Assembly: GCA_946699065.1 (NCBI GenBank)
Contig: CAMPDV010000151.1
Coordinates: 496,001 to 560,000, forward strand
Length of the DNA stretch: 64,000 bases
Direction: 5' to 3'
DNA from: Loxodes magnus
Lineage: Eukaryota; Ciliophora; Karyorelictea; Loxodida; Loxodidae
Positions 1 through 64,000 of this stretch are shown one piece after another. The notes beneath the pieces were generated by a model, which saw only the letters and a list, made by a program, of their open reading frames with translations, was not told the DNA's origin and ran no database searches. How positions within the stretch are numbered: position 1 is the stretch's first letter; each line of letters opens with the position of its first letter. The position numbers were made by a program, and so were the translations under genes.

Positions 1-1322
1 ATTTTTAGAAAGTCTGAGTTCATAAGGTTTTGCATTTTTATCTTTAAATTTTTCTCAGATTTAAAATATTTTTTTTTAATGTCAGATTAAAGTCATATCT
101 TTAATTTAAAGTTTTTAATTTTCTTAAAAAACCTCGTCATTTCGAAAGAATTTACTGTTGGAACTTTTGAAAGCATAAAATTTCCGACTTTACAACCTGT
201 AAAATTTGAACCACTATTTTGCTCAAAGATATTAAATTTTCTTAATAGACCATACTGGTTAAAAAGAATTTACCTTAGCTATTAATACTTTTTCTGTAAT
301 TAAAAAGTTAAAATTAAAGGAACACAAGCACTCATTACATATTTTAAAGATTTTAAACTTATACACCATCCTCTTCAGTTCAAAAAGATTCAAATTTGTT
401 AAGTTGGGTGTTTATATGCAAACTTTGATTCAGTTACAATCTGAAAAATTGATATATTTATCTAAAGATTTTTAATTCTAGCTATTATATAAATATTTAA
501 AATTAGTAAAAGTGTCAAATTCTTATTTCCTAGATCTTGACTGAATTAATAAGTTCTCTTTTAAAAAAGGAGATTAAGTTTTTCCTTAAACTTGACCTAA
601 GAGAAAGTTTTTAAAATACTCTTTAAGATTGTGAACTGAACTAATAATACAAACTTAACTCATGCAATAAAAGCTGTTTTTGTCTCAAAACTAGTACTAA
701 GCCTTGCAAAGAAATCTTAATCTCTCTAAATTATTTAAAGATTTTGACTTAATTCTTTTAAAGTTATAGATTTAAAAGCTACAACATACATAAGAAATCA
801 AACTTAATATTTATGACTTAGTATCATAACAAATATCATGTTAAATTTCTAAATAAACTAAACGAGCCTCTTTAAATACGAAAATTTAAAACTGTTATAT
901 TTTTAGATTTCAAAATTTTTGTTAATTTTTGTTGCGAAATTTAAAAATATTCAATATATCTTAACAAATCGATATATCCTTAAAATTTATCAATTTTTAA
1001 GCTGTAATCACTATTGATTGCAAACTAAAAACATTTTCTAAGAATATCAACAGCTTTAAATATAAATAAATATTTGACTTTTTCATTTTAAATCAGCGAA
1101 AATCTTAAAACTGTAACTTTCACTTGTACTTAAAAATTCCTACCTTTAATCGTATCGAAATAGAGATCTCTCTTAAGGATTGAAAAATTATATTTTTTCT
1201 AATTTAAGCTATCAATTGCTAAAAACCATCTAACTGTATTAATCACCAAACATCCGACCTTTTCTCGTATTAGCATAGAACTTTCTCTTTCGAATTTGAA
1301 CAATTAAATTCATCGCTTTCAT
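1..1322 (-). CDS. Large unrecognised protein, C-terminal end outside the window
   Basis: Read with TAA/TAG=Gln and TGA=Trp, this frame gives about 440 residues from an ATG at 1322 (MKAMNLIVQIRKRK) to the window edge, so the C-terminus is missing. The frame was picked because codons begin mostly with A or G and because it yields balanced stretches such as SGSNFTGCKVGNFMLSKVP (encoded near 150-220). Several hydrophobic runs (for example near residues 190-215) could be membrane segments. I recognise no domain. The region upstream of the ATG is T-rich and unremarkable. Since no frame can contain a stop under this code, length is not evidence; the case rests on composition only. Confidence 0.5.
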
Positions 1323-1809
1323 TTTATAATCTTTAGACTACATTTTTTTTCAAACGTTAGTCACGCTATTTGATAAAATCTCATTTCGTTTTTTTATTAT
1401 TAATCCATTTTATTTGCAGCTTAAAATCCAAAGTTTTTGGAAGCCTCATTTTGATCAGTAGAAAATGTTTTTACTTTATATATTCAAGCTTTTTGAAAAA
1501 TCCTTTATTAAAAGTTTTAGTTTATTTCTGTTTTTTAATTTTTATTTAATTTCCTAATTGATAAATTTTTATTTTTTTATATTAGAAATATTTTTTATTC
1601 TTTTTTATAAATTAACTTCAATTTTTCTTTTTTAAAAGGATAATAATTTTTGATTCTTTTAAGTTGATTTTAAGTTTTCTTTTTTATTGTTATTTGCTTT
1701 GAAGTTTTATTTTTTTCATTCTAGTTCATATTTAATTAGCTTTATTTTTTTTCTTTTTGAGGTACCATTTTTTTATAAATTATTAATAAATTTTATTAAG
1801 GATAATAAA

Positions 1810-2554
1810 ATGGCACCTAGGAAGTAATCCATCTAAGACTAATCTCCTAACTAGCAATAAGATATCTAGATTCAGATTTATTCGTTATGAATTGAAGAAA
1901 AATAGATTCGGTGAAGAAACTAATTCAGCAAGTAAAAAGCTTTGACTTAAAAATTTACTAGTTCAAGAGTGATAATAAAATCCTGAATATAGATCTAAGT
2001 TTAATAGTTTCTAAATATCTATTAAACTAAGAAATTAAAAGAGTAGAAGGTAAAATATAAGAAATTTGATGTCTTAATTAAATCAAAAACGAACAAGTTA
2101 TGATCGTAGTTATTTACGATCCAATGGAGATTAAACAATCAAACTTAAATAATAATTAAACAAAAGAATGTTATCAAATTAAATAAGTAATAAAGGGAAG
2201 GTCAATTATGTGTGTTGATTTAGCTGAAGGATAAATCATAAAAAGAACTGTTGAAGATACCAAAATTTAAAAAGGCGAAAATAAAAAATTATGAAAAAAC
2301 CCAAACAAAAATTTATTTGATAATCTGGAAACGACCTTTATAAATAAAAATGATTGGTGAATAAGATACTCTAGTAAATGTTATATGCTGAAAAAAGAAC
2401 CAAGTAAATGTTTAAAACGATTGAGATTGGTATAAAATACCCACAGTAAAGAAAAGATAGATTAATAGAAATAAATATGTTATTTAGAATACAAACCAGG
2501 AGAAGATATGGACGATTTCAATGATTTTTGCAATTATTCTCAAGACATTTGATA
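1810..2554 (+). CDS. Small unrecognised gene with acidic C-terminus
   Basis: A purine-rich block flanked by T-rich DNA. An ATG at 1810 opens MAPRKQSIQDQSPNQQQD, but the better central frame is shifted by one (RYELKKNRFGEETNSASKK). The C-terminal part is clear: VCVDLAEGQIIKRTVEDTK near 2210-2270, then YKPGEDMDDFNDFCNYSQDI ending at a TGA followed at once by TAA (2552-2557). The last 27 codons lack any TAA, TAG or TGA, which fits a true terminator there. The frame changes probably mean one or two tiny introns; a GT...AG stretch of about 24 nt near 1966-1990 is a candidate. No family recognised. Confidence 0.45.
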
Positions 2555-3943: not shown

Positions 3944-4050
3944 TATTTTATCTAAAGCACAAAGATTAAATTATATTTTATTTAATGATGATTCTATATG
4001 AAGGATTAATTTATTTATTAATGATAAATAAAATATAGATGTTGGTTGTG

Positions 4051-4699: not shown

Positions 4700-5730
4700 T
4701 AAAATTATTTGCAAACATAAAGTATAATCCTACTCTTTTTTCTCTTGAACTTACAATTCCTTACAATGTGGAGGTTTTAGTGTTTCTTCACATTCTTATT
4801 TTTTCTTAGGTTATCTCATTTCTTAATTTATTTTATCCATATTTGATATTATCCAATTGCTATCTATTGAGAATTTAACTGTAGCTACTTATTTGCGTGA
4901 CCTTTAAGATAAAAATACATTATCTAGTTGAAAATTTCCTAACTTTATCGTTTCTTCAACTTTTCCTAAAATGATTCATTTCTGGTCACTTGATTTAATT
5001 ACAGATCTTACAGAATTATTATGTCCCTACGAAGTTAACTAACCACTAGTCAAGTTTTATACCTTTACTTGATTTATCAGTAGATCCTTATATTATTAAA
5101 TTTTTATCAAGTGCAATAGCTACAAAATTGACTTAGGATATGTGGCTTTAAAAAATAAGAGTGGCAGTGAAATTGAAGTTATTAGTTGCTTATATCAGAT
5201 TGCTGTAATAAAATGGATAATGTTCTATCAAGCCAGTTTTGATCAAAGGCTTTTTTTTTTCCTGAGATATCTAAACTTTTCAAAGTGAAGCTCGTAAAAT
5301 CTTAGACTACTCATTTTATTAAATTTTGCTAAGTTAAATTATCCCATTAAGCCAAAATCTATTCATTGAAACTTCTTTTCTTCCTTCTTAACTTAAGTTA
5401 TCTATACTTTGTATAATTTAGTGGTTTATCTTATTACTAGTCCTTTTAAGAGTATTGATTTAGTAATAATGATAGCTATGAAAGTTTCAATATTTTGGAT
5501 ATTGGAACATAATTGCATACTTACGTTGAATATAAGATGCAAATTATGTTTAAAAGAGGCTTCTATTTACTTCAAGTGCTCATTCAAAACTACTTGCTCT
5601 AATTCTTCTTATAAAGCTAAATTAAAAAATTCTCACTTTTTCCATCTGAGGAAGTTATTGATTTTTCCTGTTTCAACTTTAACATTTCTAATCCTCTCTT
5701 CACTATTCCTTATGAAAGACCCTAATTAAT
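4700..5730 (-). pseudogene. Decayed or fragmentary WD40-repeat gene
   Basis: On the minus strand the segment near 4800-4900 reads KVATVKFSIDSNWIISNMDK, a typical WD40 blade start (G-H dipeptide, VxxVxFSxDxxW), followed by KKKQECEETLKPPHCKELQ. Another piece, near 5060-5130, reads FVAIALDKNLIIQGSTDKS, again WD-like. Between and upstream (5150-5400) are degenerate N-L/D-L pairs like the pentapeptide segment of the two full relatives (15415-13200 and 24287-26420). The blades sit in different frames and several lack the terminal W-D, so it is either broken or has unrecognised introns and indels. A 106-codon open frame on the opposite strand is its shadow. Confidence 0.45.
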
Positions 5731-5875
5731 TTAACCACTTAGAAAGTTAGGTTTTAGAAAGATTCTAGTTTATATAAGTCAATCAAATAAAATTAACTCC
5801 TTCTAGTCTTTTCCCAAAAAGTAACTAGCTATTAGAAAAGCCTAAATAAAGTCTACGAAGTAAAGGAAATTAAAA

Positions 5876-6340
5876 ATGTGTACGGATGCGTCTAAATCTT
5901 AGTCATATATACAAAACGTACTTGATTAGGTACCATTATGGTATTAACGTTGCTCAAATTAGAAATATTAAGAGTAAGCTCCCAGTTTTTAAAAGGAAGT
6001 ATAGTCCAGAATAAGGTACTTATTCAATTTAGAGTTTGATATTTAAAGAAGCACTTTTAATTATCTTATACTCGATCAATTTATTTTTTTAAAAGAGATA
6101 CTTAGAAGACATTTATTAGAAGGATTTATTTTCAAATCTTAGATGTAAAATGCTTATTAAACTCTTTTAAAAGTACGAGTTTTATAAGCATCAAATTGAT
6201 AAATTTAGATGCTTTTATTTAAATGACTACGAAATGTTAAATCTTGTAAAAAACAGTTTGACAATAAAAAATATATCGGAGTCTTCCTCTTAATTGATTT
6301 AGTTTAGATTTACATTTTATTTAGCAATTAAAATGTTTTT
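5876..6340 (+). CDS. Small unrecognised ORF
   Basis: From ATG 5876 the frame reads MCTDASKSQSYIQNVLDQV and continues about 150 residues with Leu/Phe/Lys-rich helical segments. Purine-first codons hold through about 6300. No motif recognised and no clear terminator; the end is a guess. Confidence 0.35.
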
Positions 6341-6344
6341 ACCC

Positions 6345-7240
6345 TAACAAAAATTAACTTTTAATTTACTCCTTTAAAAAGATAAAAGCATGGAAAATTT
6401 AATTTTGAATCATTTACTTGAATTTGTTTGCTCTTTTTCCTAACCCTATTTCTTCCTAACTCCTTGATTATCTTTAAGGCTAATTGCGATTAATTAAATT
6501 ATTTTCGATTTGCTTTCTATGAACTTTCATTTGATTACCACAGAATTAGTTATAAACTACGAGTGATGTAGTTTAATCGTTCTAAATACTAGCCTAGTTA
6601 TTAGATACTATTCTTTGAAGTTTCTTTCAATGCTTTGAGTACTTGCTAAACGAACTGAACTTATTTATGTCTGATTTAATTATTAAGTATCAGTGAGTGA
6701 TTTTATTTGATTTATTAACTTTATTTCTAAAACCATTCACTCTATAACAGCTTCACTTACTCATTACTTTGAATACATTCAAGCATATTTATCTGATTTC
6801 CTAACGTTTGTCAGAATTCCAATTTTCTAGCTTTCCAGTCTTACACCGAGCATTTTTAATGATTTCTACATACTACCATTAAAAATTTAAAATACTGTAT
6901 AAAACATTATAACATGAGAAACATCTACAAGGTAACCGATTTGCAAGTCGATAGTCATAGTTTAAGTTCTTATGACGGTATCAATACAAATTGTATCCTT
7001 AATTATAAAAAATGTATACAATCATAATAATAAAAATTAGATATACTGAAATAAATATTTAATAGACTAATATATAATTATTAAATTTAAGCTTAATAGA
7101 AGCAATAAAATGGTCACTTAAAATAGTATTTTTAACTATTTAAATTACTTTTTTTAGGTAAAATTTTACCAAAAAAAAATTAAAATTTTTGGAAAAAGTT
7201 TGACCGAAAATTTTTTTTGTGAAAGTTGTTAAAATCGTAT
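6345..7240. other. Stretch without a supported gene
   Basis: AT-rich sequence with mixed strand bias. I see no conserved motif, repeat or RNA here. A purine-rich tract begins at about 7190 and leads into the zinc-knuckle ORF. Confidence 0.4.
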
Positions 7241-7359
7241 TGATAATAAAAAAATAAGGAAAAGAAAAAATTTAATAGATTTAAAAAAGGAAAACATTTA
7301 AAATCAAAGAGGGATGTAAGTTTAAATATCAAAAAAGATAGAAAAAAGCAAAAAAAGTT

Positions 7360-11530: not shown

Positions 11531-11539
11531 AGCCAAATT

Positions 11540-12519: not shown

Positions 12520-13200
12520 ATTTATTTAATTATTTAATTTCTTTCTAAAATATCTTCCTTGTTAATACTTTTATTTTAAATAAACTTCGTTTGGTATTTT
12601 TATCACTACAAAGTTTCCAACATTAAAAACAATAAGCAAAATATTCTCACTCCTTTTTATACATAATTAGTATTTTATTATTTTACAGTTCTTAAGAAAC
12701 TCACCTTACATATTTTAAATTTCGATATCTACATTTTTATTTTTTATGATATGTAAATTCCTAAATTCAATTTAAAATTTTTAATGCTTTATTTTTTAAG
12801 ATAAGATCCTTTTTTATTTTTGCTTTAGATACTTTGAAAATTTTATTTATTAAAATTATTAACTACTCAACTCATTTTAAATGGTAGTTATTAAATTTAA
12901 ATTTTTATTTCTGCTGCTTTTTAAGAAATTTTCTATGGGTAATACTTTATTTTGCTTTTATAATTTTAAGTATATTTATTTTCAATAAAGGCTTAAAAAT
13001 TCAAAATATGCCACATTCCTCACTCTTATCTTTTATTTTCTACTTGATACTCTCGTCCACTTTTATATTTTTTGCACTACAGTTAATAAATTATAATCCA
13101 TAATTTTCATACACTTTGCTTCAATCTCTCTATTAAATTGACTATATTATATCTTACTTAGTCTTATTCACTTGAGTCTTAACTACTATTTATTCTTTAT
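12520..13200. other. AT-rich stretch downstream of the minus-strand WD40 gene
   Basis: T-rich on the plus strand with little third-position pattern. It probably holds the 3' flank of the gene ending near 13200; I see nothing else in it. Confidence 0.4.
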
Positions 13201-15415
13201 ACATTTCATCTTCTCAGTGTAAAATCTTTATCCTATCCTCATAAGGATACACTACCTCTACCTGATACCAACCATTTATCATCTTTTGATATATCTATAG
13301 TTTCAACTACCTCATTATGACCTAGTAAAGTACAAATGCATCTTCCATTCTTGAATTCCCATATCCTAATTGTTTTATCCGAACTTCCAGAGATTATATA
13401 TCTATTGCTTGAAGTGATCTTCACACACCCTACATAATTTGTATGACCTAAAAGAGTCTAAATACATTTACCAGTTTAAAAATCTCATATCTTTATCGTT
13501 TTATCTCTACTTCCTGATATCAGTCACTATGAGTCATTTGATATTGCTATAGATATTATATAATCCATATGTCCTTGCAAAGTGTTCTTACATTATCCTG
13601 TCATCAATTCTCATATCTTGATTGTCTTGTCATAACTTCCCGATACTAGTCACTTGGAGTCACTTGATATTGCTACAGCATAAACATTTCTTGTATGTCA
13701 TGTCAAAGTTTTTTTAATTGACCTGTCACTAAATCTCATATCTTTATTGTTGTATCTTCACTACCTGATACTAATCATTTCGAATCACTTGACAATGCTA
13801 AATCTCTTACATAACTCGTATGTCCTTACAAAGTGAAATTACATTAACCAGTCAATAACTCTCATATCTTTATCGTTTTATCTCAACTTCCTGATATAAT
13901 TCGCTTTGAATAACTTGATATTGCTACTGCTAATACATAACTTGTATGCCCTTGCAATGTACATTTACACTAACCCGTTATCAAATCTCAAACCTTAATC
14001 GTATTATCAAAACTACCTGATACAATTCACTTTGAATCACTTGATATTGCTACAGAAGTAACATAACTAGAATGACCTTAGATGATATGAGGGTGTTCGG
14101 TAATAGAGTTGGAGAGATTAGCATTATTTAGATTACAATTGATGAACTTTGTATTACGAAGATTGCAGTTTTAGAGCTGTGCATTTGCAAAATTACATTC
14201 ATTGAAAGTAATGTCAGACAAATCAGCGTTAGATACTTCAATTCCCTATAAATTTGATTTAGTGAAATTGTAATTCATATAGTTTAAACATGTTAAAGCA
14301 TTTGAAACCGCTTATTGTAGCTATTAACTATTGCTTTATAAATTAATGATTTATCATAATTTTTACTAGATTTTCCTATCTTTAAGTGATATTAATTCTG
14401 TTATGCTTTCCGTATTTTAACTTATGTTTACTTTGTTAAATTATCATTGTTCTAGCTATTTTTACTCTACTTCATGGTTTTATAATTCGATTAAGAAATT
14501 TTATAACTACTTTGCACTCTTAAAATTGTCATACTATTCGTACCAATTTTCTTAATGAACCTAAACTTGTTTCTAATCCTACTGACTTTAAATTTATTAG
14601 CAAAGTTACATAAACTCTTGGCTAATAACTTTTCCTTACTAGTCTTAGATTTAATTTGATTCTTTCTTATTGCTGATACTTTGCTTGGTGAAATACTACT
14701 AAATCAAATTTTATATTTAATGTATTTCCAATCTCTTTCCTTTAAAACTATTTGCCATCTCTTAAACTACATTGATAATATGCGTTTGCAAATTGTTTTA
14801 GAAGTCGTTAATATCGATTAAAGTTTCTTGAAACGACTAAACTTGTTCAATTTCGATCTGTAATGTAGCAAAGCTTTATGCAATCTCATTTAATTAGTTT
14901 AAATTTTGATTACATTCTAGGATATTATTCACTCTTTAGTCTTTAACTTGCTATAAACTGTTATTTACCTTGTTTAGTTGTTTTAATAGTTCTTCTATTT
15001 ATTTAACCTTAACTTGCAATGCTCTTATTTCACTTGAGTATAAATAATAGCTAACCTTTTAAATTATTCCTATGTACAATTTCTAGTACTCAGTTACAGT
15101 TTTTATTATATCTTAAAGTTATATCTTCTAATTGTTATTATACAGCATAAGGAGTTATATCAGATCACCTAGATGTGTATGTTACTCCAATCTACTTACT
15201 TCCTATTTTAAATAATCATTTCAGTTTAAATCTTTAAGACTTTAGGTATCAATACTGACTAATTAGCTATGCTTATTACAATTTATAGTGTTAGTTCTTT
15301 CTTAGATCTAGTTTATACAAACTAAACACTTTACACAACCACAATTAAGAACTTTTGGAACTCTCTAATTTTAATCGAAAGCCTACTAGCAGTTTTAGCA
15401 GATACTAAGATCCAT
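13200..15415 (-). CDS. RING / coiled-coil / pentapeptide / WD40 protein, paralogue 1
   Basis: ATG at 15415. Residues 1-52 form a RING-like zinc module: CQNC, then CGCVKCLVC, then CNKH. RING modules usually recruit E2 enzymes for ubiquitin transfer. A Gln-rich coiled-coil region follows (about 15200-14300). Pentapeptide repeats come next (14265-14110: SNADLSDITFNECNF, then CNLRNTKFINCNLNNANL), and finally about seven WD40 blades (14100-13236). Trp positions of the blades are often TGA (for example SSDSK-TGA-LVSGS, KI-TGA-EL) and sometimes TGG; Gln is often TAA or TAG. One expected Trp is Arg (CGA). The last 60-75 codons carry no stop-type codon before TGA at 13236-13238, the probable terminator. 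At 13709-13715 an A7 run (T7 on the plus strand) breaks the frame; one more A restores it. A close relative starts at 24287. Confidence 0.85.
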
Positions 15416-24165: not shown

Positions 24166-24286
24166 TTTCTTTTTGATTAGCGATAATATTTATCTTTTTG
24201 ATATAAATGCTTATTTAATTTTTTAAATTTGGTATTTGATTTTACCAATTATTGTTATAATTAGTTCCTTAAATGACTTTTTAAAT

Positions 24287-26420
24287 ATGGATACTAACCA
24301 GTGTCCATATTGCTTAGCTCCTTATAACAATGACAGTCAGTTAGCTAAGTAACTTCCATGTGGTTGTGCTTCATGCTTCTAATGTATTAAAACGTTTTAT
24401 TAGTTTTATTAGCACATAAAATGCAAGAAGCATAATTAAGCTTTTAATATCAGACCAGAAGAATTATAAAACTATACGGTTCAAGTAAAGACGAAGGAAA
24501 AGGAGTAGAATTTGTCCTATCAAATCTAAACTAGTGAGTAAGTAAATGGTTATAGGACACATATAATAAGAACCAAGTTTAGTACAAGAGCTTAGTAAAT
24601 TTTATGAACGACAGTTAAAAGTTATTCAAACAAATATGCAGCTAAATTCATTAGTAAGTCCTCAAAATAATGAAAGGAACTTTAAGAAGCAACATTCTTT
24701 AAATAGGTTAATACTTAAATAAAATGAGCTACTTCACTGATAGTCTATATCAGATGTAGTGTAAATCTAGTTTAGGTTGATAACAAGCAGGATGAAAAAA
24801 ATAGAAGATAATAGAGCTGTAAAATTAACTCTAAATGGTACTTGAGGAAATAAAGGAGTTCAAAGAGAAATAAGTTTAGGAAATAGAACTGAATAACTTC
24901 AAGCAATTGGTTCAGGATTAAACTTTCAGTATTTTTAATTTTTTTAAATAGTAAGCAAATGGTTAATTATTGACTGAGGATAAGGCATTTTAATTACTAG
25001 GTCAATATTTATAATAAAATCAACTTTTAGATAAATTCAATAATCTTTAATAGCTATAGAAAAGCAAAGGGTAAGGTTAAGAAGAATAAACAGAAATAAC
25101 TCCAATGCATAACTAATAGCCTAAGGAGCTAATTAAGATACAGCAAAAGTAGATTAAGTATGTATTATAAGATTTCAATCAAATCACTTTTGATAAACTA
25201 AGAGAATTCCTTAACTAAGTTAAAGAGGAGAATATAACTATTCAAAGCATGAGATAGAATCCTCTGAACAAACCAGGATTGATAGAATAGACATCTATCT
25301 TATTACAACTATCTTCTAAAATGACTAAGAACTAAATTAAAAATTAAGCTAAATACTATAGTTGGCAAAAACATGCTAAGAAATTTAATAAGCAGCATCT
25401 AATGTAATAACCATAATGAACTATATGAATGTTAGATTAGATATGTAAAACTTATAGTGAATCAATTTGAAAAATGCTGACTTATCAGACACTACATTAG
25501 CTAATTGCGATTTATCCAGCTCAAGCTTATAATAATGCAATTTAAGAAATACGAAATTCATCAACTGCAACTTGAATAATGCCAATCTCACTTCCATCAC
25601 AACTGAGTGACCTATTTTAAAAGGCCACTCCTCTTCCATTTACTCTGTAACTATAACAAGTGACCAGAAATGAATCATATCGGGAAGTTATGATAAGACT
25701 ATTAAGATCTGAGATTTCTAGACTAATATTCGCAAGAGTAATTTGTAGGGACATACAAGTACAGTTGTATCATTAGCTGTAACAAATGATCAGAAATGAA
25801 TTGTATCGGGAAGCGCAGATAAGACAATAAGGATATGGGATTTTCTAAGTTGGGCCTGTAAGAATACTTTGACGGAACATAAAAGTACAGTTTTATCGGT
25901 AGCCATAGCAAACGACATGAAATGAATCGTGTCGGGAAGTTACGATAAAACATTAAAAATATGGGATTTTTTAACTTTTCAATGTATTCGAACTCTGAAT
26001 GGACATTAAAAAAAGTGAATTCTGCAAAGATAACATCAGACAATAATTGAATAATTTCAAGTTCTAACGATAATACAATTAGAATATGGAATTTCTAGAC
26101 TGGTTAATGTTTATTCACTTTTTAAAATCACTAGGGATGAATTTAGGACTTAGCATTAAGTAAAGACAATACTTGAATACTTTCAGGAGGAGAGGAAAAA
26201 ATATTATGAAAATGGAACATCTAAAGGTTGATATAATCGAAGGATTAAATTCAATAAGTAAGTATTATTTTAAATATTCCTCTAATAATTAAAGAAGTTC
26301 GGCTGAAATGAAATATATGCTGAGTATGGTTTAAAATTTAAGAACTGTGATACTGCTGGTATTTAGATGAGTGAGGAGGATAAGTAGAGATATTTAGGAA
26401 ATGAATGAGTGAAAACGAAG
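24287..26420 (+). CDS. RING / coiled-coil / pentapeptide / WD40 protein, paralogue 2
   Basis: ATG 24287 (MDTNQCPYCLAPYN). RING-like Cys/His pattern: CPYC, CGCASCFQC, CKKH within the first 60 residues. Gln/Lys-rich coiled coil follows (for example EEIKEFKEKQVQEIELNNF). Pentapeptide repeats lie at 25450-25590 (NADLSDTTLANCDL, CNLRNTKFINCNLNNANL) and at least six WD40 blades at 25620-26235. At blade and adjacent Trp positions I count about ten TGA and five TGG. Three GT...AG introns (24534-24555, 24759-24775, 25404-25435) restore frame; two A7 runs (near 24795 and 26008-26014) each need one extra A. RING plus WD40 suggests a ubiquitin-ligase-type adaptor; that role is inference. The C-terminal end is uncertain between 26250 and 26420. 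Confidence 0.85.
24534..24555 (+). other. Inferred 22-nt intron
   Basis: GTGAGTAAGTAAATGGTTATAG. Removing it links the RING-proximal frame to the frame encoding QQEPSLVQELSKFYERQLK. Confidence 0.55.
24759..24775 (+). other. Inferred 17-nt intron
   Basis: GTGTAAATCTAGTTTAG. Its removal gives SDVVDNKQDE, which runs into the coiled-coil frame after the adjacent A7 run is read as A8. Confidence 0.4.
25404..25435 (+). other. Inferred 32-nt intron
   Basis: GTAATAACC...GTTAG. Removal joins the coiled-coil frame (KKFNKQHL) to the pentapeptide frame (LDMQNLQWINLKNADLSD) exactly in phase. Confidence 0.55.
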
Positions 26421-26679
26421 AGGAAATTTTTTAAAATTTTATATTTAAGGTATTAAATTTCCAAAATTTTAAAAGAAATAAAAATAAAAAAATTGAAGAT
26501 AAAAAGCTATTAGAATTGTCGAAAATTTTTAAACTAAATTGAAATAGAAAAATTAAAATAAATGCTAAAATTTTAATTTTAAAGTTTAAAAAAATAAGTT
26601 TACTTAAAATCAAAAAATTATTTGAATTAAAATATTTAGGATTAAGAAGAGTTTTTATGTAGAATTATATAAGTTCGCT

Positions 26680-27612: not shown

Positions 27613-28308
27613 TTATTTTTTAACTGTACAAATATTCAAAAAAATAAGTTCAAAAATAGAGAAAAATAAAAAAAAGTATTTTAGGATGAATGGGAGAAAT
27701 TCAGATTGGGTGTATAATGTACTATACTAAGAAAAGACAAACTACATTACATTATGAAATATATAAAAAAGAGAAAGCAAAACTAATTTCTTCCAAATTA
27801 CTCTTTTTTTTTCAAAAAAGGAAAGTAAAATAATTAAATTTTTTTATTGGTTAATGAAGAAAATTTTAAACTTAAGAAAATAAAAAAGAAGCACTTGATT
27901 TTAGATATTAAGAGCTAGATATAAAAATTAATTATTATTTAACTTTTAAAAAATAGAGGAAAAATGAGAATAGACAGGTAGTATAATTTTTGGATAAATA
28001 AATAGGAAAATGAAATGGAAATGGAAATGAAATTTAGAAAAATATAGAAAAAGAGCGTTGAAAATAATGAAGGGAAACAAAAAATAAAATAGGAAAAAAG
28101 TAAAAGATAACAATTTGAAATTTAGAGATGTAAAGTACATTGATAGTCTACTTTAAAGCTAAAATAAAATTATTTCTATAAAATGGTATAAGAGAATTGT
28201 GGATCTTTAGTTATAAAAATTTGTTTGGAACTTAAAAAAAATAAAAACAAAAATTAGGAATTTTAAATAATGAAATTAATAAATTTTGCTTTGAGTTGTG
28301 TGGTTAAG

Positions 28309-44690: not shown

Positions 44691-45469
44691 CTTATTAAAA
44701 ATCAATTAGAATTAGAAATCTATTAGAGTTATAATAAATCTAAGATACTAAATGATTCTAAAATTAGACTGGCTTTTAATAAAAGAAAGATAGTAATCGT
44801 GTCTTTTTAGCTTATATATTTTTGAAAAAAATATATTGGAAAAAGCTAAAAACGAAGTAGCATAATAAGTATTTCTTATCTGAAAATTGATTAAATTTGT
44901 TACTATAGGAAAATTAAATAGAAAGATTAAAAATGTATTAAAAAAGTAAGTCATAAGTATTAACCTTATATTCTAAAATAAATTTTACTAATGTAAACTT
45001 AAAAAATGACTAAGCATATAATTTGTTTAGTTTACTATAAAAAAGCAAAACTCAAAAGTAAGGGATAGAAATATAGTATTATAGCCAACTAATTTTATTT
45101 CAGAATAATAGCAACATAAACGTAATAAAGTAGTTTTTGGATTAAAAAATTAAATAATAAGTAAGAAAATCAGACATAAAAGTATCTAAAGAGTTTATTT
45201 CCAAAATTACGTCACAAGTTCAAAAAAATGGATTTAATTATAGATATGAAAATTAACAATAAGAAGAAAATTAAAAAAACTAAAGAAATCTAAAAAGTAA
45301 TAAATATAATATAGATATAATACATAAATATAAAAATACTATACAAATTAAAACACAATTATAAATATGTTGTTAATTCGCCTAAAGTGATTAATCAATT
45401 AATTAAATCTACAAATTACTTTTCATATTCAGATAAGCATATATCATCGAAGTATAAAATAAATATTAA

Positions 45470-48330
45470 ATAAATTATCAATTAATTTGATATAGATATT
45501 ATGTAAAAATTATTTAAATTCAAAACTCATTAAAGAAAATGCTTTTTAACCATAATGAAAGAATAATAAAGCATTAATAAATTATTTAAAATAAGAAGTT
45601 AACTTGTCTATGATAAATGCTATTAATTTTTTTATTTCTATTAGAATTAAAAATTTTTAATTGTTTTTTATGAATAATTATCTTTTGAATTAAATATATT
45701 GCCTTTCAATTATTTTTAAATTTATATAGATTACAAGATTTATTGCTTTAACTAGTTATAATTATTAAATAATACTGACATTTATTCTTTCTTTTGTAAT
45801 TATTAAATTACTAAAGCATTTAATTAAATCTGCCTTTCCTTACTCCCAATTATCAGTAAAAATGATGTTATCTTCATACTCTTTTTTTAATAAGTTTAAT
45901 TCCTTTATAAGGATAATCTATTTTAGTTAAATAAAAGATATTTTATTAGATTTGCTTATTCACTTAAAATTATAAAAATTTCCTATAAGAAATAGTAAAA
46001 ATAAATAGAATATTATGCTATATTTAATAAATATTCTACAATATACCTATCTAATTAGTTAACCAATTAAATAGTTAGGATATTAAATATATAATTATTA
46101 TATAAAACACAATATCTAACTAATTTACTATTGAAATCTACAAAATAATACAAATTTACATTAGATAGAATAATTTAAACCTATTTAAAATAATATAGAT
46201 AAATCTCTATTTTGAATTATTTTGAATCAAAAGCTAACTAAATAAAAAATTTTAAAGAATTAAAGTGTCAAAACATATAAATAAAGGTTATTAATTAATA
46301 TTCTCTGTTTAATGGTATATTGATAAATATTGGAAGTATTAGCATCCTATATTTTTCATCATGTTTATTTAACATTTAAATTTAATTAATACCTTTATTG
46401 TTTTGAGCTCTCTTTAGTTAAAAAGATATTAAACTTGCGAAGAGCATCAGTATTTAATATCTGGAAAATAAAAGTTAAATTTGTCTCTTTTTTCAATTAA
46501 TTTTTAAAGACAAACACCCTGAAATTGAGTAACTAACATCCTTTAAAAAGTTATCTTTCGGCCTTTCTAATAAATTATTAATAGAAGATGCATTTTTTAG
46601 CCCTTAATAAAGAGTTTTAATTCTATTAGATTCATTATATTCATTATATATTTATTATTGCCTATTGAAACATTTTACTAAATGTAAATAATATATTATC
46701 TTTTTTATACTTCTCAAAATGAATAAAAGTAAATATTTTTTTAATTTATACTAAAAATCGAACTATATATAGTCTTTTATCATACTGTTAGTCTTTTTAA
46801 GGATAGCTTATTATATTAAGTCAATTTTTTATGTGAAGTACAATTAAATTTTGAAAAGAAGAAAAATTAATACTTTTTTAAGATCCTTTACTGTTTTTTA
46901 AAGACTAAACATATTTATTAAGAAAATGTAGTTATCATCATAGAACTTTATTTTGTTTTATATCTTCACTACTATCAATTTTTTAGTTAAGGACTTTATA
47001 AATAATTATTATGATATTTCTATAGAGTAATATTCAGCATTTATTTAATAATAGTTTAGTAATATTTAACTTTTTATAAGCTTTATGAATTTTCGTTACT
47101 TATTATAATGTAATATTTCTAAATTTATATAATAATTTGTGATTTAAACTTTTTATAATCAAAATTAGCTTGATTTACTATTCAAACAGACGAGTTTTAT
47201 AAATAATTATCTATTTATTGAAATAAAAACTATAATGTAAAAGTTAATTTTTTGTAATTATTTAGTACTCTAATAAAATGTATGCATATCTTATGAATTA
47301 AGTATTTATTTTAAATTTTATACAACTATGCTTTAGCTTTTATTAGTATAAGATATTATAATCTAAGTTTGGGTATTATAATTTTAAGGGGATTGGTTTA
47401 ATCCTTTATTTGAATAGATAAAATGATTTTAACTTCCATATTTATGATATATTTTGTTTTACAAACTTCTCATTAGATAAAAAATGCTAATAGTTTATAA
47501 ATTTTTATCTTTTAATGCTTATTTTTTAGTAACATAAATATTTTAAATGAAACTTTATAAAAACTAATTAGCTATTTTTTATTATATCAAACATCAATAA
47601 ACTATACTATTTTTTATGTTTTCCTTATGAACATGAAACTTAAATTTTAATACAATTGTATTTATTATCAATTTTTGAAATTATTACTTTTTTTAAGTCT
47701 TAATTAAGATATAAAACTTCCTAGTTTAATAAGTATATTATTATTTTAATTATCATATGATTATTGCTTTCTTTAGTTTTTAATATTTATCTTTGAACTT
47801 TGCTGTAAAATTTAATGATTAAATACAGTTAATTGCTAATATTTTACACATTTTACTCATAATTTTGATTCTTTTATTAGCAGTAACTGGTAAGCCTTAT
47901 TTTAACTTTCCTTTAGAGTAAATAAATTTCTGATTGCATTAAACTTTTAACCACTGCAATGAAATTTAGCAGTATTAAAGCTTTTAATTTCGGTTAAGAA
48001 ATATTTAAATTTAATAAGCAGTTTCGATAATTAAAAGTTTATGTCTTTTACATTCCTCTTATTCAATTAATTTCCATTCTAAAACAATAATATTTTAAAA
48101 CTTATATGTTTTAGTTAAATAGCTATAAAAAGCGATTGAGTTAAGTAGATCTATAACTCAAATATATAGATATTTTATTATAGCTTTCTAAGATACAAAA
48201 TAGATATCCATAATATCTAACTTATATATATACCATAAACATTTATAGAGCAAAATTATTATCTTAGCTATAAAACAAACTTAAGTTGCAAAATGTAAGT
48301 TATTCATAGAAGCACTTACATAAAAAAGCA
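45470..48330 (-). CDS. Membrane-protein gene, paralogue 1 (in direct duplication)
   Basis: On the minus strand several blocks are conserved with 60030-57500. At 46070-45850: PNYLIGQLIRQVYCRIFIKY, then FYLFLLFLIGNFYNFKWISK, a clear transmembrane segment ending in Trp written TGA in both copies, followed by KEYEDNIIFTDNWEQGKADL. At 46640-46420: NGLKNASSINNLL-like and LTFIFQILNTDALRKFNIFL. Near 46940: KFYDDN. C-terminal: HYGQKAFSLMSFEFKQFLHN near 45560. Exons are probably separated by AT-rich introns or spacer. The protein family is not recognised. Preservation of these blocks in a diverged background argues for past selection. Confidence 0.55.
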
Positions 48331-48499
48331 ATTTTCTATATAATTAAAAAATAATAAGTTTCTATTTAATTTTAATAGGAATTATTGTATTTAAATTATA
48401 TTAAAATAGTATATTATATTTTAATTGTTAATTTATACTAGAAGATATAATTAAACTTTTATTTAGTAAAGTTTTTTAGAAGAAGGTGTAAAGATAGAA

Positions 48500-52400: not shown

Positions 52401-52404
52401 GATT

Positions 52405-54175: not shown

Positions 54176-54179
54176 AGTT

Positions 54180-54330: not shown

Positions 54331-55139
54331 ATGGAAGTATTTTATTCTAGAATCTAACTGTTATTATTATGATATCTATTTAAATCTAGATTTCTATATT
54401 TTTCTAACTTGTATAAAATAAGAAAATATAAATTAATATAAAATTGCCTTATTTATGACAAAGTACTTAAAAGCTGATTTTAAGCTTAAAAAATAATTGA
54501 TGAAAGGTTAATTAGTAATAAAAGTAAATTATCTGACTTTTAAATAAGCGTAATGACTCTTTAAGTAAATAATAAAATAGTAATTTATATAGTGCTAATA
54601 GTTAATACAATAATGGTCTTTTCTATCTTTATAAATGAAAGATTTTTATCATTACTCTATTTCGAATCGGAATTTTCCTTATTATAATAGATATTATTAA
54701 ATTTGATATTTGGCTTTCATAATAATAATAAGATTGAAATATAAAAGAGTAAAATGAAGGAAATTATAATTATGAGTATGCTTCAAAGTATAAAAGATAA
54801 AATATTTGAAAAAAATTTATATAAATTTATCAAAAAAGTTTAATAAACCACTTTCGCATATAAATCCTATAAATATTAAGTTGGGAATTTTAACATATCT
54901 GGTCATATTTATACTGGGAAGAACTAGATTTATTAATAACCTCTAAGTATCTTTACTTATGAGGCTGCTTCGTTCCCTATAGCACGTCTAATTAGTCTAT
55001 AATTATTCCCTTAAATTTCTACTTGACAAAGCCTCATAATTTTACTACCTAGAATATCCTCTTACTTAGTAAATAGTTTACAATATTTTAATTTAGTTTT
55101 TTTTGAGTTATATTTCAGTTTTATCTATTAAAATAATAG

Positions 55140-56754: not shown

Positions 56755-56826
56755 GGACAAGTAGCTCAGTAGTAGAGCATTGGACTGCAGATCCAGAGGT
56801 CGAGGGTTCGACTCCCTCCTTGTCCT
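56755..56826 (+). tRNA. tRNA-Cys(GCA): tRNA-Cys (anticodon GCA)
   Basis: A complete 72-nt cloverleaf: acceptor GGACAAG/CTTGTCC (7 bp), D-arm GCTC...GAGC, anticodon stem TTGGA/TCCAG with loop CTGCAGA, T-arm GAGGG-TTCGACT-CCCTC, discriminator T. The A box (TAGCTCAGTAGTAG) and B box (GGTTCGACTCC) are intact, and a T6 run (56826-56831) follows as RNA polymerase III terminator. No intron, no encoded CCA. It charges Cys and reads UGC/UGU. It is the highest-GC feature of the AT-rich 45-60 kb section and sits between the two copies of the direct duplication. Confidence 0.97.
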
Positions 56827-57499
56827 TTTTTAGTTCTTTTATATAATATAATTTTTAATAACTATATCCATTTAATTTAATTTTTTAATTAGACATAATG
56901 AAACTAAACAGTATAGCTATTTATTAATAAAATAAATAGCGAAAAGATTAAACTTTCCCTTTTTAGCAAGATTATTAAAATAGTGCTATGATTATTATAA
57001 AAGGAAGCAAAATTCCTTATTTTTATTTAACAAAAATGTTTCTTTTATTTCAGAATCCTTTTTTAAAGTATAATAATCTATTTTTATATTTAATTTTATG
57101 AATCTTTATTACAAATGTTTTATATTATTAATTAATAAATACATGATTGTTATAAAAAGCTTATTTATTTAGAAAAATTTAGTATATAAATTTTAGCTAG
57201 TCTTATGAAATTAAATTTAAAATAGCATAATTTAAATACTTTAATGCTTCTTTTGCCATTCACTTTAAGTTAGAAGCCTTAAGTTCTTTACAATCACTTA
57301 TTACTTAATAATTTTTATTAAATATGACTTATTATATAAAATAATGTGAAGTAATAAGTTTTTTTTAAGTTAAATCTGTACTTATTAGTTTATATTTAAT
57401 AGATACCTGAAAATTAGTTTTCTTAGTCATGTTAATTTTTATTTTTTTAATTACTTTTTGAGATTTATAAATATGAAACTTTAATTATTACTTTGATAT

Positions 57500-60030
57500 A
57501 CTATGTAAAAACAATTTAAATAAAAGCTCAATAAAGATTATATTTTTTAAGCAAAATGAAAGAATAATAAAATACTAATTAGATATTTATAAATAAGAAA
57601 GTTAATTTGTCTATGAATAAAGCTATTAATATTTATTTCTATTATAATTAAAAACTTTTAATTTCTCTTTTTTAAATAAGTATATTGGATTTAAGTTAAA
57701 TTTTAAATTAGTATAAATTACAAGATTTATTATTTTAGCTAGTACCAATTATTAATAAATATTTATCTTTACTCTTTTATAATTATCATATTATTAAAGC
57801 TTATTACATTTCTCTTTCATTACTCCTATCACTAAAAATTATGTTATCTTCATACTATTCCTTTTATAATTAGTATAATTCCTTTATAAGAATAATCTAT
57901 TTTAGTCTAATAAAATATACTTAATTATATTTGCTTATTCACTTAAAATTATAAACATTTCCTATAAGAAATAGTAAAAATAAATAGAATATTATGCTAT
58001 ATTTAATAAATATTAAACAATATACCTATTTAATTAGTTAACCAATTAAATAGTTAGGATAATAAATAGAAAAATATATATTATTATAAAGCAATATAAC
58101 AACTAAACTTTTAACTATCAAAAGTTATAAATTAGCATAAATGTATACAAGATAGAATAATTTAAACCTATTAAAAAAATGTAAAACAATATAGATAAAT
58201 TACTATTTTATATTAATTTGAATCAAAAGCTAAAATAAATAAATAATCAAAACACAAAAATTAAAATTAATTAATTAGTATTTTCTATTTTATGGTATAG
58301 TATAAATAATCTAAATATTAATATCTTATTCTTATCATCATCTTTATTAAACATTTCAACTATATAGATCCTTAATTATTTGGAGTCCTCTTTAGTTAAA
58401 AAGATTAGAAAGTGACAATCTACTTATCTTCTAGAGTAAACTTACGAAAAGCAGCAACGTATCATATCTGGAAAATAAAAGTTAGACTAGTCTTTTTTTC
58501 AATTCATTTTTAAAGAAAAACACCAGGAACCTGAGTAACTAGCATTCTTTAAAAAATTATCTTCAATATATCTAATAAATTATTAATAGAAGATGCATTT
58601 CTTAATCCATTTATAAAAGATTTAACTTTATCAGATTCATTTTATATTAGTCTTGACTATTAAAACAAATTATATATAATTATTTCGCATACTGTTAATC
58701 TTTTTTAAAGAAAACCTTATATATTTAGTCAATTTTTAAGTGAAGCTTATATAAATTAAAAAATGATGAAAAATAATAAATTTCTTTATTTTTACTATAA
58801 AGAATAAGTATATTTATTAAGAAAAATGATTATCATCATAGAACTTTACTTACTTTTATGCTAATTTCTATAAAGAATATTTTAAATAATATATATAAAT
58901 AAATAGAAATAATACAAAAAGTAATAAGTGTTTAGTTTAATATAAAATTATTATTTTAAGTTTTTAATGTTATAAATTTTAGTTACTTATTATAATATAT
59001 TATTTAAAATTTCTTATAATTATTTTTACATTTTTCTAAGGATTTATTACTAATCTAGCTTGAATAACCATTTAAATAGACTAGATTTATATTTAATTAT
59101 CAATCTAACAAAATAATGTTTTTTTTGTTATTATTTAGTATTCTAATAAAATCTATGATTTTCTTTATATTTTATCATTATTTTACAATCTATTGCAACT
59201 TTTTAAAAGCTGTTTTTGAGCCTAAGATATGATAATATATGTTTAAATGTTATAATTTAAAAGTAATAATTTTCTATTTAACTAGATAGGTTTCTTCAAA
59301 GAGTCTGATTGAATGATTTAGATAGAAGGATTTGATATAAAAGTTAGTAATTTATAAATTTGTATTTGAATGTTTATTTTAATAGCTTAAATGTTTTTAA
59401 ATGCAATTATAAACTATTTATTTATTCATATTTAAACTAACTATTTTTATGTTTGCTTGCTTGAAACTTAAATTTTAATACAATGATATTTATTAGAAAG
59501 GAATGGCTTTATAAAGTCTTAATTAAGATATAAAGCTCTCAAAGTATTAAAATAATGCTATTTATTTTTAGTTACTTAATATTTTTTACTTGATTGTATT
59601 GAATAAACCCAAATGAATAGTTTATTTTAAGTTGTATAGATTTTAGTAAAATAGGATTCTATATTATTAGTAATTGGTAAGCCTAATAATAGTTTTGTAT
59701 AAGAGTTATATTTCTGATAAAGTTACTAAATACTATTTTTAAATTTAGCAGTATTAATATCTTTATTTGGTTATCTTAAGTTTAATTAGCAATTTAGATA
59801 ACTAAAAGTTTATATCTTTTACATTACTCTTATTAAATTAATTTCCAAAACATTAATATTATTGTAATTTATCTGTTTTAGTAGTTAAGCTAATTATAAC
59901 TAAAATTACTAATATTCTATTATAGATTCAGATGATACTATATAGATATTCATAATGTCTAAATCAATATTTATACAACTAACCTAAATTCTTAGTTATT
60001 AACTTTAATTGCAAATCTTATTTATTCCTA
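57500..60030 (-). CDS. Membrane-protein gene, paralogue 2 (diverged, perhaps decayed)
   Basis: Direct duplicate of 45470-48330. Best block at 58070-57850: PNYLIGQLIKQVYCLIFIKY, FYLFLLFLIGNVYNFKWISK, KEQYEDNIIFSDRSNE. Another at 58680-58440: NGLRNASSINNLLD and NFLKNASYSGSWCFSLKMN. The copies differ by many substitutions and small indels, and the frame of several blocks shifts between them, so one or both may be pseudogenes. TGA for Trp at the FKW position is shared. Confidence 0.5.
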
Positions 60031-60179
60031 CAACCACTTACTTAGAAACACCAATTCTCTATCAAAATTATCACTTTTTCCTCTATTTTCATTATAATAC
60101 TATACTATATTTTACTTTCCTATTAAGGCTCAAAATCAATTTACAATCAAGTAGTTAAGTAGAAGAAGGATTAAATTAA

Positions 60180-60856
60180 AAAGAAACATTTACTATCTAA
60201 AGAAACATTTACTATATAAAGAAACATTTACTATCTAAAGAAACATTTACTATCTAAAGAAACATTTACTATATAAAGAAACATTTACTATCTAAAGAAA
60301 CATTTACTATCTAAAGAAACATTTACTATATAAAGAAACATTTACTATCTAAAGAAACATTTACTATCTAAAGAAACATTTACTATATAAAGAAACATTT
60401 ACTATCTAAAGAAACATTTACTATATAAAGAAACATTTACTATCTAAAGAAACATTTACTATCTAAAGAAACATTTACTATCTAAAGAAACATTTACTAT
60501 CTAAAGAAACATTTACTATCTAAAGAAACATTTACTATCTAAAGAAACATTTACTATCTAAAGAAACATTTACTATATAAAGAAACATTTACTATCTAAA
60601 GAAACATTTACTATCTAAAGAAACATTTACTATCTAAAGAAACATTTACTATCTAAAGAAACATTTACTATCTAAAGAAACATTTACTATCTAAAGAAAC
60701 ATTTACTATCTAAAGAAACATTTACTATCTAAAGAAACATTTACTATCTAAAGAAAAATTTACTATCTAAAGAAACATTTACTATCTAAAGAAACATTTA
60801 CTATATAAAGAAACATTTACTATCTAAAGAAACATTTACTATCTAAAGAAACATTT
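60180..60856 (-). repeat. 19-bp minisatellite, 35 units, inside the LINE ORF
   Basis: On the plus strand the unit is AAAGAAACATTTACTATCT. From 60180 to 60844 there are exactly 35 units without a single indel, then a 12-base partial. Seven units (by my count 2, 5, 8, 11, 13, 21, 33) end in ATAT, and one unit near 60755 has AAAAAT for AAACAT. On the minus strand the array continues the LINE endonuclease frame at SLDSKCFF. Three units (57 nt) return the frame; all frames stay open under this code, giving the 19-residue repeat VSLDSKCFFRQQMFLQIVN. Confidence 0.97.
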
Positions 60857-63260
60857 TCAGGCATATAGCAAGATGTGATTAATATATTTTCCATTTTGAC
60901 TGAAGCAAATCGATTTTAAGTTTCTATATTTACTCATATTCAGTACTATTGGTTTCATCTCTAATAATCAAGCTTACACCTCCTCCTTTATCTGCATTTC
61001 TAAAGTATATCCTATATCCTTTTATTAGTATAGGAGGAAAATCTTACTTTTGTCATGTTTCATTAATTGAGAAGATGTCTATGTCATTACTTTTGATAAA
61101 TTCTTCAATCATTAACTGTTTTCCTGCTATTCCATTAATGTTAACGTGTCCAATCTTGATTCGAGTTCTATATTAATATTAATATTAATTATTATCTTTA
61201 TTACTTTCTTTTGATCCAACTGGAAGTCCATTTTCGTAAATACAAATATTTTTATTCTCTTGTTAATCATAATCAACATTTACAAATTTTTTACCATATT
61301 CCGGACGCTGATGAAAGAATTAGATAATTATTAAAATTACTTATTTATTATATTTTTATAACAGCTTTTGATCAACAAATATTTTGGTTTTTTTAATACT
61401 ATCAATAGTTCCAAATGTTAGATCTTAATTTATTGTCACATACCTGCCTTAAATATTACTCATTTCATACTGTGTTTTTCTTCAAGAACCCTATAATATA
61501 AATTCCTTGAGTAAAGGCGATTTAAAATTTAAGGATTGCATTATTTTTTCACTTTCTTTTTGATCTCTATATTTAATACTACGTTTAGCTACTGGAATTT
61601 AAATATAGTCTTTTTCCTATTTTCTTTTAAGAGGGTTTGATTTTTTAGCAACAGAACATTTTTAGTTTTCAATTTTATTGAAATCTGTCTAGTTCTATTA
61701 ATCTTTTGATTAATTTTTAGCTTTAAGGCTAAATAATCCATTCATTAACATTTTATTAATTTCTTATTATTTTCTCAGATTTTCCTCTCACTTTTAATTG
61801 TTACATATGAAATCTATATTTAACTAATGATATGATTACTAGAGTTTTATATAATTCTTTTCTTACAAATTCACTTGGCAAAATTGGTCTAATTGATCAA
61901 CTTTTATTGTGTTAGATGATATATCTAAACACTGGATTTTTACTTAAATTTGCTTATCCTATCCTAAAACATCTGTTTAAGTTTAATTAATTTTGGTTTA
62001 ATTTATTTCTGTTTATGTTTACATTTCAAAATATATTTTTTAATATTTTTATTGTTGCTTAGTATAAAAGCTTGTTATGTTTTCAATTTCATTTTATTTT
62101 TATGTTAATAATCCTTACAGGATTCATTCTTTTTATTAATGTTGTGCTTGTAATATCCTGATCTGTTCAGAATTATATTGTTATTGATTCTCTAATTCTT
62201 AACTAAAAATAAGATTTAATTTTATAACTCCTAGCGCTGTTTATTGTATTACTGATTTTCAAATTACTAATTTTTAAATTCGACTTCAGTCTTATTCTTT
62301 AGCTAATAAACTTATTAAAGTTCTCATTATATTTGGTCTGATTATTATTGTTGATATTAATATAGTTCAATTAAACATTGCAGATAGTTCATTTATTAAT
62401 AAGTAAATATTTCATTGAATTACAAATTTGTTTATATCGATTTATGATTTTCAACTAACTCAGTTTAAGTAATTTATTGATTAAAATAAGTTTATTCAAA
62501 TTATTAGTTTAAAAAGTCTGTTTAAATTTCCATCTCTCTATATTATTCCTTTATTTATAAACTTCTTAAAGTAACTATTAAGTATGATATAATATAAATT
62601 ATTTGATATCCTTAATTTTCTTATTAATTTTATTTATATAAATCTTGTACTGCTCATAGATTGCTTCATAAGAGTTAATCATGTCTTAATTGTTTTGATT
62701 AATTTGTGCAAGAATATTTTTTATTTTTCTAAAGATATGTTATTATCTGTTAAGTTTTTTATTTATGTCTGAAGCTCTTTTACTTCATTCAAAAGCGTTT
62801 CATTTTCTTTTTTAATTAAAAAAATATATTAAATATCCATAGTATTATTCCCTGCTTAGAAATGGTTAGATAATATAATATCCAAAGTATCTTACTATAA
62901 AAAGGATATTTTTGATACGATTGGTGAGACTGAGGTACCAAACTATTTTTTTTATCTATAAGTATATTTCTCAATCTTTAAAATTCTTGATAGTTAATTT
63001 CCACTTTTTAGGGAATTTCGAAGTAATTTTAACGGAATACGAAGGAACTTGTTAACTGGAGATTAACTACAGATATTTAGTAAAGCTCTTAACAAGTTAT
63101 TTATCTTCTTTACGGATTTGAATTGAAATGAATTAGGGTCAATTTTTAGAAAGTAGTCGAGCATCTGTCTATGCTCATTTCATAAGATGGCAGCTTCTTT
63201 ATTTTTAGATAAAGAAGAGTCGTCAAGATTATAATCCTGCGATATTTAGAAATCATCCAT
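60857..63260 (-). mobile_element. Non-LTR (LINE) retrotransposon, 5' half
   Basis: ATG 63260 opens MDDFQISQDYNLDDSSLSK; an N-terminal region with coiled coil (LLNEVKELQTQIKNLTDNN near 62790) follows. Around 61310-60900 lies an AP-endonuclease-type domain: IGHVNINGIAGKQLMIEEF, SNDIDIFSINETW (Trp=TGA), YRIYFRNADKGGGVSLIIRD and ILITSCYMPEN. These match the N-x-N, E-T and GG-V blocks of LINE endonucleases, which nick target DNA for target-primed reverse transcription. A frame change near 62720 (A-run) and one near 60890 suggest damage or sequencing indels. The reverse transcriptase that should follow is missing; the minisatellite interrupts the endonuclease. Confidence 0.75.
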
Positions 63261-63269
63261 TTTCTTTTT

Positions 63270-64000
63270 TTTTACCTATTATAACTTTTATATCCATCGA
63301 CAATTTTATTATTTTCGCCCTTAATAATTATTAATTCTTTTCTATTAAGCATGCTTTGTAATATCTTGGAAACAAATAAAAGTTTATCTAGATTTGTTTG
63401 AAGTAAATTAAGGATGATTCTAAAGAATTTAGCACTTATATTAATAAATCTTAATCTTAGAAATTTGAGGAGAAGTTAAGAAGTAATAAAGCTATAATGA
63501 AGGATTAATATTAACAAGAAAGAAGTTACTTAAGTTAAAAATTATCTTCTATTAGCATGTTATTTAAATTAAATATTACCTTAAACAAAAATCAAAAGAT
63601 CAAGGGGAAATAGTTAAACAGCTAATATCATTAACAACTATTTTATTATTCATTATCTTTAATCAATACAAACCTACTATATTGTAGTGCTTTCTAAAAT
63701 TCCCCTTAAATCAAATAGCTGTAGACTTTAAGATTAATTCATCATTTATTTGTATCTTATAAGCAGATTAATATTTAATTCTTATCAACAGTTTATAAGC
63801 TATACAAGATAGGATATTATTCAATAGATAGATATTCTAATTTATTACCATAAATAAACCTAAATATACCTTTATCATAATACACCTCTTTATTTATTCT
63901 TTAATCTTAATCAATTTTCATTAATTCCAAAAGAATAATACTCTCCTATCTACTCTTCATCTAATTCAACTCTTTTTGCTAACATTTATTATTCCCTATT
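63270..64000. other. AT-rich flank of the LINE
   Basis: No supported gene. No telomeric repeat at the window end. Confidence 0.4.

What the first reader, a model, noticed from the sequence alone, without database searches (positions are those of the whole stretch)
1..64000. All three stop codons are sense: TAA/TAG=Gln, TGA=Trp
Seen directly: in two WD40 proteins TGA falls again and again at the invariant Trp positions (K-W-[IL]-[IV]-S-G-S and I-W-D), mixed with TGG, while TAA/TAG fall at ordinary Gln sites. The LINE endonuclease has TGA at N-E-T-W. The duplicated membrane protein has a shared TGA at FKW. Known: such codes occur in karyorelict ciliates (table 27), Condylostoma (table 28) and Amoebophrya. 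Inference: an ambiguous-code ciliate. Standard annotation would call this window nearly gene-free.
Basis: partly seen in the sequence, partly recalled or inferred. Interest (0 to 1): 0.9.

Follow-up and report, generated by a model that had tools for sequence, protein, structure and literature searches.

The report
Known ambiguous genetic code of Loxodes
This DNA comes from a single-celled ciliate whose cells read all three usual stop signals as amino acids, and use one of them (TGA) both as tryptophan and as the real stop; the reading is right, but this unusual code has already been published for this group.

Summary
The core observation holds. With the stop codons masked, TGA falls where tryptophan belongs: in 20 protein-kinase domains sampled from the same genome the D-x-W column reads 10 TGA, 8 TGG, 1 TTT, 1 TAT, and the TGA column profile matches Trp (r 0.98). 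TAA/TAG stand for Gln: 9 of 20 sites in eRF1 align with Gln of human eRF1, 4 of 18 histone H4 Gln sites are TAR, and tRNAs with UUA and CUA anticodons are abundant.

One correction: TGA is also the stop, in 9 of 9 histone H4 genes and, by inference, 2 of 2 eRF1 genes. That fits NCBI table 27 (karyorelict), not table 28.

The window lies in a 705.7-Mb genome. The published Loxodes magnus macronuclear assembly is 706 Mbp and uses table 27. Every tRNA-Trp(CCA) gene that I read in full has a 4-bp anticodon stem, already reported for Loxodes.

Both window WD40 genes carry a 1-nt frame slip. Verdict: correct, already known.

The parts
12975..14476 (-). WD40 gene A: N-terminal pentapeptide repeats, then WD40 repeats; TGA at most Trp sites, TAA/TAG in frame; one 1-nt slip at about 13708 (A7 run). 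Ends approximate
   Evidence: Pfam WD40 E 6.2e-37 and 4.9e-40 in two frames; repeat spacing 126,126,125,126,126; slip sequence; paralogue matches reach 12975 and 14476
24206..26482 (+). WD40 gene B: weak RING-like N-terminus, pentapeptide repeats, WD40 repeats; TGA at Trp sites; one 1-nt slip at about 26003 (A7 run), shared by five relatives. Ends approximate
   Evidence: Pfam WD40 E 3.6e-34 and 4.8e-13 in two frames, Pentapeptide 1.6e-11; RING E 0.025, below cut-off; relatives
4841..7079 (-). Possible degraded third relative of the same family (a WD40 remnant at 4841-5056 and a RING-like remnant at 6297-7079)
   Evidence: six-frame self-comparison E 3.7e-7 and 6.5e-12; Pfam WD40 E 0.049, below cut-off
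60930..61331 (-). LINE-type endonuclease fragment with NET-TGA, next to a 19-nt minisatellite
   Evidence: PF03372 E 0.0036, below cut-off; 150 scored matches in the genome, a capped list; TGG or TGA at the site in 5 of 8 fetched relatives
60180..60856 (.). 19-nt tandem repeat array, 35.6 copies
45459..48346 (.).
57467..60070 (.). Duplicated AT-rich stretch, copy 2

Best explanation
The window is most likely a piece of the macronuclear genome of the karyorelict ciliate Loxodes magnus, or a very close relative, and is read with the published karyorelict code (NCBI table 27). TAA and TAG are glutamine, matched by abundant tRNAs with UUA and CUA anticodons. TGA is tryptophan inside genes and is also the stop at gene ends. 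[quoted passage not shown] Inferred from the literature: the 4-bp-stem tRNA-Trp reads TGA as a near-cognate, and nearness to the mRNA 3' end lets eRF1 win at the true stop.
For: Genome of 705,730,643 bases against 706 Mbp published, with table 27 stated for Loxodes. A 17-nt GT...AG intron in the Pelota gene against a published mode of 17 nt. TGA at the Trp column of kinases, 10 TGA and 8 TGG of 20; log-odds 59.5 for Trp, next 7.8 for Phe. eRF1: TAR at Gln in 9 of 20 sites. H4: 4 of 18 Gln sites TAR and 9 of 9 genes followed by TGA. tRNA-Trp(CCA): 96 of the 100 listed pattern matches share one 3' half (132 matches in all); the 27.43 pair is A.C in all genes read on contig C67 and U.C in 4 of 4 read on C148. 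UCA-specific pattern: one chance-like match, control 1+1. CUA tRNA: 74 matches, control 1. UUA tRNA: 215 matches, control 33, most of the 100 listed being one sequence.
Against: In the kinase columns the likelihood test puts Glu above Gln for TAA, and Lys and Glu above Gln for TAG; only the profile correlation favours Gln (0.91 against 0.76 for Glu). The one in-frame TGA of the Pelota stretch aligns with Asn of the Pelota chain in 5lzw. Three of 45 unique WD40 repeats have TGT at the second Trp site. Gln identity of the UUA/CUA tRNAs rests on a recalled likeness to eukaryotic tRNA-Gln. Both window WD40 genes have a frame slip and may not be functional.
Confidence: 0.95

Rival explanations
1. 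Condylostoma-type code (table 28, number recalled): all three codons are sense and all three are also stops.
For: Shares every sense assignment seen here.
Against: 9 of 9 H4 genes end in TGA and both eRF1 copies have TGA at the expected end; Loxodes is published as table 27. Only 11 gene ends were looked at.
Confidence: 0.03
2. Blastocrithidia-type code: TAA/TAG = Glu, TGA = Trp, TAA the stop (as described in PMC12153298, passages).
For: Kinase column likelihood favours Glu over Gln for TAR.
Against: H4 Gln27 and Gln93 are TAR in 4 of 18 sites; eRF1 TAR sites align with Gln 9 times and Glu 2 times of 20; the H4 stop is TGA, not TAA.
Confidence: 0.01
3. The window's WD40 'genes' are pseudogenes under a standard code, and the stops are ordinary decay.
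For: Each has a 1-nt frame slip; a third copy looks degraded.
Against: 20 of 20 kinase domains sampled carry in-frame TAR and 12 of 20 in-frame TGA. H4 and eRF1 do the same with TAR. Gene B against three relatives gives pN/pS 0.39, 0.51 and 0.43 (L143, 0.51, has a slip of its own, so part of it was compared out of frame); L142 and L144 are open in one frame.
Confidence: 0.01

Closest known systems
Karyorelict nuclear code, NCBI translation table 27 (Loxodes; Parduczia)
   Same: TAA/TAG = Gln; TGA = Trp internally and the stop at gene ends. Stated for Loxodes in PMC11441545 (sections 8 and 9 read); Parduczia in PMC4967479 (passages).
   Different: Nothing that I could test differs.
Loxodes magnus macronuclear assembly (PMC11441545)
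   Same: 706 Mbp against 705.73 Mb; short introns, mode 17 nt, against one 17-nt intron here.
[quoted passage not shown]
   Same: CCA anticodon, top stem pair unpaired; no UCA tRNA found with one pattern.
   Different: Here the broken pair is A.C in one tandem array and U.C in the genes read from another; I did not see this detail in the passages that I read.
Condylostoma magnum code (PMC4967479, passages)
   Same: All 64 codons are sense.
   Different: There all three codons also terminate; here only TGA was seen to, in 11 gene ends.

Membership tests
NCBI table 27 (karyorelict code) | TAA and TAG encode Gln | tested here: met
   H4 4 of 18 Gln sites; eRF1 9 of 20 sites; UUA and CUA tRNAs. 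Kinase likelihood alone did not single out Gln.
NCBI table 27 (karyorelict code) | TGA encodes Trp inside genes | tested here: met
   20 kinases, stops masked; WD40 Trp columns; LINE NET-W site.
NCBI table 27 (karyorelict code) | TGA is the only stop | tested here: met
   9 of 9 H4 genes and 2 of 2 eRF1 genes by inference; only 11 gene ends looked at.
NCBI table 27 (karyorelict code) | Stop or sense set by distance to the mRNA 3' end | not testable with these tools
   No transcripts or ribosome profiles on hand; stated in PMC11441545 section 9.
NCBI table 28 (Condylostoma code) | TAA and TAG also act as stops | tested here: not met
   0 of 11 gene ends.
Blastocrithidia code | TAR = Glu with TAA as stop | tested here: not met
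   H4 Gln sites and TGA ends.
4-bp-stem tRNA-Trp(CCA) | 27-43 pair broken | tested here: met
   A.C in the C67 genes read, U.C in 4 of 4 C148 genes read.
4-bp-stem tRNA-Trp(CCA) | No cognate UCA tRNA-Trp | tested here: inconclusive
   None with a usual T loop and 5-base variable region; other forms not searched.
Loxodes magnus | 18S rRNA placement | not tested
   No rRNA search of the genome was made and no named 18S collection is on hand.

The most novel reading that the evidence does not exclude
Some WD40 genes here may be translated through a -1 ribosomal frameshift. Both window genes step back one base at an in-frame A AAA AAA or A AAA AAG, and in gene B the slip is shared by five other copies on four contigs, so it is unlikely to be a sequencing error of one copy. 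An in-frame form with one more base (a T) exists in five other copies, so the step probably arose by loss of that base.
Probability: 0.05. Interest if true: 0.5.

Novelty: already known. Interest (0 to 1): 0.2.

Why it matters
It supports, from DNA alone, that one nuclear genome reads all 64 codons as amino acids and still stops at TGA. Under the standard code this window has no frame of 150 codons, so such genomes must be annotated with their own code. The biology itself is published.

Tried and rejected
Gene finding by self-trained codon composition drifted, found about 4 kb of signal or many weak segments. Pfam scans of 30 chosen frames hit only the WD40 regions; later scans gave weak RING, WD40 and endonuclease matches below cut-off. 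The rest of the window was not scanned in all six frames. RF00005 over the genome was swamped by one family (six of its loci run through ARAGORN were tRNA-Lys). The first tRNA patterns missed the tRNA-Gln genes, which have A, not G, two bases before the T loop. Rejected: the membrane-protein evidence (on codon phase only, since gap lengths did not discriminate); the Condylostoma and Blastocrithidia codes; a pseudogene reading for the code as a whole. Rows dropped before counts: alignment columns with fewer than 8 sense neighbours in the kinase tally (1 of 23 TGA, 4 of 26 TGG); identical nucleotide repeats in the WD40 tally, counted once. In one search positions where both genes hold a listed codon were counted twice by the script; the report gives positions, not those counts.

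Full report
What was checked. The window has 75% A+T and no stop-to-stop frame of 150 codons or more under the standard code, on either strand. Reading TAA/TAG as Gln and TGA as Trp opens every frame, so openness by itself proves nothing; the evidence has to come from conserved positions.

The window's own genes. Two WD40 genes are present: A at about 12975-14476 (-) and B at about 24206-26482 (+). Both have pentapeptide repeats before the WD40 repeats. A motif that leaves the Trp sites free finds 7 repeats; the first Trp site is TGA in 7 of 7, the second TGA in 5 and TGG in 2. The repeats are tandem copies of about 126 nt, so these are not independent. Comparing gene A with gene B over 288 aligned codons, TGA faces TGA at 5 positions, TGG at 3 and other residues at 7; TAA/TAG faces TAA/TAG at 6, CAA/CAG at 3 and other residues at 14. 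dS is 1.70 and dN 0.44.

Wider test, stops masked. Pfam protein kinase gives 136 matches in the genome; only one row reads 'none' under stops inside. I took every seventh row, 20 in all, translated the stops as X, aligned them and asked what stands in the same column in the other sequences. TGA: 22 usable sites of 23, Trp log-odds 59.5, next Phe 7.8; profile correlation with Trp 0.98. The D-x-W column holds 10 TGA, 8 TGG, 1 TTT, 1 TAT. TAA/TAG: 120 sites; profile correlation highest with Gln (0.91), then Glu 0.76 and Lys 0.72. The log-odds, however, put Glu (7.6) above Lys (-6.5) and Gln (-16.3), so kinases do not settle Gln on their own. All 20 have in-frame TAA/TAG; 12 of 20 have in-frame TGA.

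Gln is settled elsewhere. Nine histone H4 genes (read) have two Gln sites each; 4 of these 18 are TAA or TAG and 14 are CAA or CAG. In one eRF1 copy, 20 TAA/TAG sites align with human eRF1 residues: 9 Gln, 3 Ser, 2 Lys, 2 Val, 2 Glu, 1 Ala, 1 Thr. tRNAs with CUA (74 matches, control 1) and UUA (215 matches, control 33) are abundant. ARAGORN finds a tRNA in 5 of 5 fetched pieces, which its bacterial code labels Pyl or Stop, and Rfam in 2 of 2 given to it. Their likeness to eukaryotic tRNA-Gln is recalled.

Stops. All 9 H4 genes end ...YGFGG-TGA. Both eRF1 copies have TGA right after ...DEDFL, near where human eRF1 ends; that it is the stop is inferred, as further in-frame TGA follow. TGA is therefore sense and stop in one genome, and no gene end in TAA or TAG was seen among 11. 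This is table 27, not 28.

Machinery. tRNA-Trp(CCA) lies in tandem arrays on contigs C67 (about 187 nt apart) and C148 (241 nt apart): 48 + 48 of the 100 listed matches, of 132 in all. The 96 share the 3' half of the anticodon stem. Where I read the 5' half the stem has 4 pairs: A27.C43 in all 386 occurrences in the overlapping C67 loci and U27.C43 in 4 of 4 genes on C148 (Rfam marks the mismatch in the C148 gene shown). A pattern for UCA gave one match that looks like chance. eRF1 reads RAQNIKSRAVQKA where human has TASNIKSRVNRLS, so Ser70 is replaced by Ala, and FLCENTF where human has YLCDNKF (Tyr125 to Phe). In Blastocrithidia Ser70Gly goes with TGA readthrough (PMC12153298, passages). That the 4-bp stem lets tRNA-Trp read TGA is from the literature (PMC13092985, passages), not shown here.

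Identity. The genome has 705,730,643 bases. PMC11441545 gives 706 Mbp for the Loxodes magnus macronuclear assembly, table 27, and introns with mode 17 nt (passages; sections 8 and 9). A gene matching Pelota (E 1.1e-83 to 5lzw) has a 17-nt GT...AG intron where the frame changes. The one in-frame TGA in that stretch aligns with Asn. I could not check an accession.

What did not hold. The FKW pair at 45960 and 57939 sits in a duplication whose substitutions are even over codon phases (p 0.13 and 0.39), unlike the WD40 pair (p 2.4e-6); gap lengths did not discriminate. It gives no sign of coding. The LINE endonuclease fragment belongs to a repeat family (150 scored matches, a capped list), and the NET-W site reads TGG in 4, TGA in 1, TCA in 2 and CGA in 1 of 8 fetched relatives.

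A loose end. Both window WD40 genes lose one base at an A7 run (repeat spacing 125 instead of 126). Of 12 relatives of gene B read at this place, 5 share the A7 form, 5 have an in-frame form one base longer, and 2 are more distant without the run. Relatives L142 and L144 are open in one frame across the site; L143 has its own slip elsewhere. No relatives of gene A were read. Decay of a duplicated copy is the plain reading; a -1 frameshift is possible and unproven.

Judgement. The code of Loxodes is published, so this is confirmation, not discovery. Seah 2022 and Swart 2024 (eLife) were not held and are known to me only as cited.

Noticed in passing
window 13700-13720 (-) and 25995-26010 (+): Both WD40 genes step back one base at an A7 run; in gene B the slip is shared by 5 of 12 relatives read there, while 5 others have an in-frame form one base longer.
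   Followed up: partly
G000 contigs C67:482324-491202 and C148:155465-168456: 96 listed tRNA-Trp(CCA) matches in two tandem arrays; the top anticodon-stem pair is broken as A.C in the genes read on one and U.C in the 4 genes read on the other.
   Followed up: partly
G000:C196:19713-20081 and 54613-54981 (L010, L011): Two eRF1 genes about 35 kb apart on one contig, similar in protein by eye.
   Followed up: no
window 23360-24168 and 28306-29113: An inverted pair of about 810 nt at 92% identity; substitutions even over codon phases, so perhaps a repeated non-coding or mobile element.
   Followed up: partly
window 56755-56826 (+): A tRNA-Cys(GCA) gene.
   Followed up: no
G000 contigs C1503, C119, C272, C1832, C9, C620, C6957: Long tandem WD40 arrays, with open frames of up to 2899 codons as the tool reports them (C6957); in the stretches read on six of these contigs the first Trp site is TGG throughout, unlike the window genes.
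   Followed up: partly
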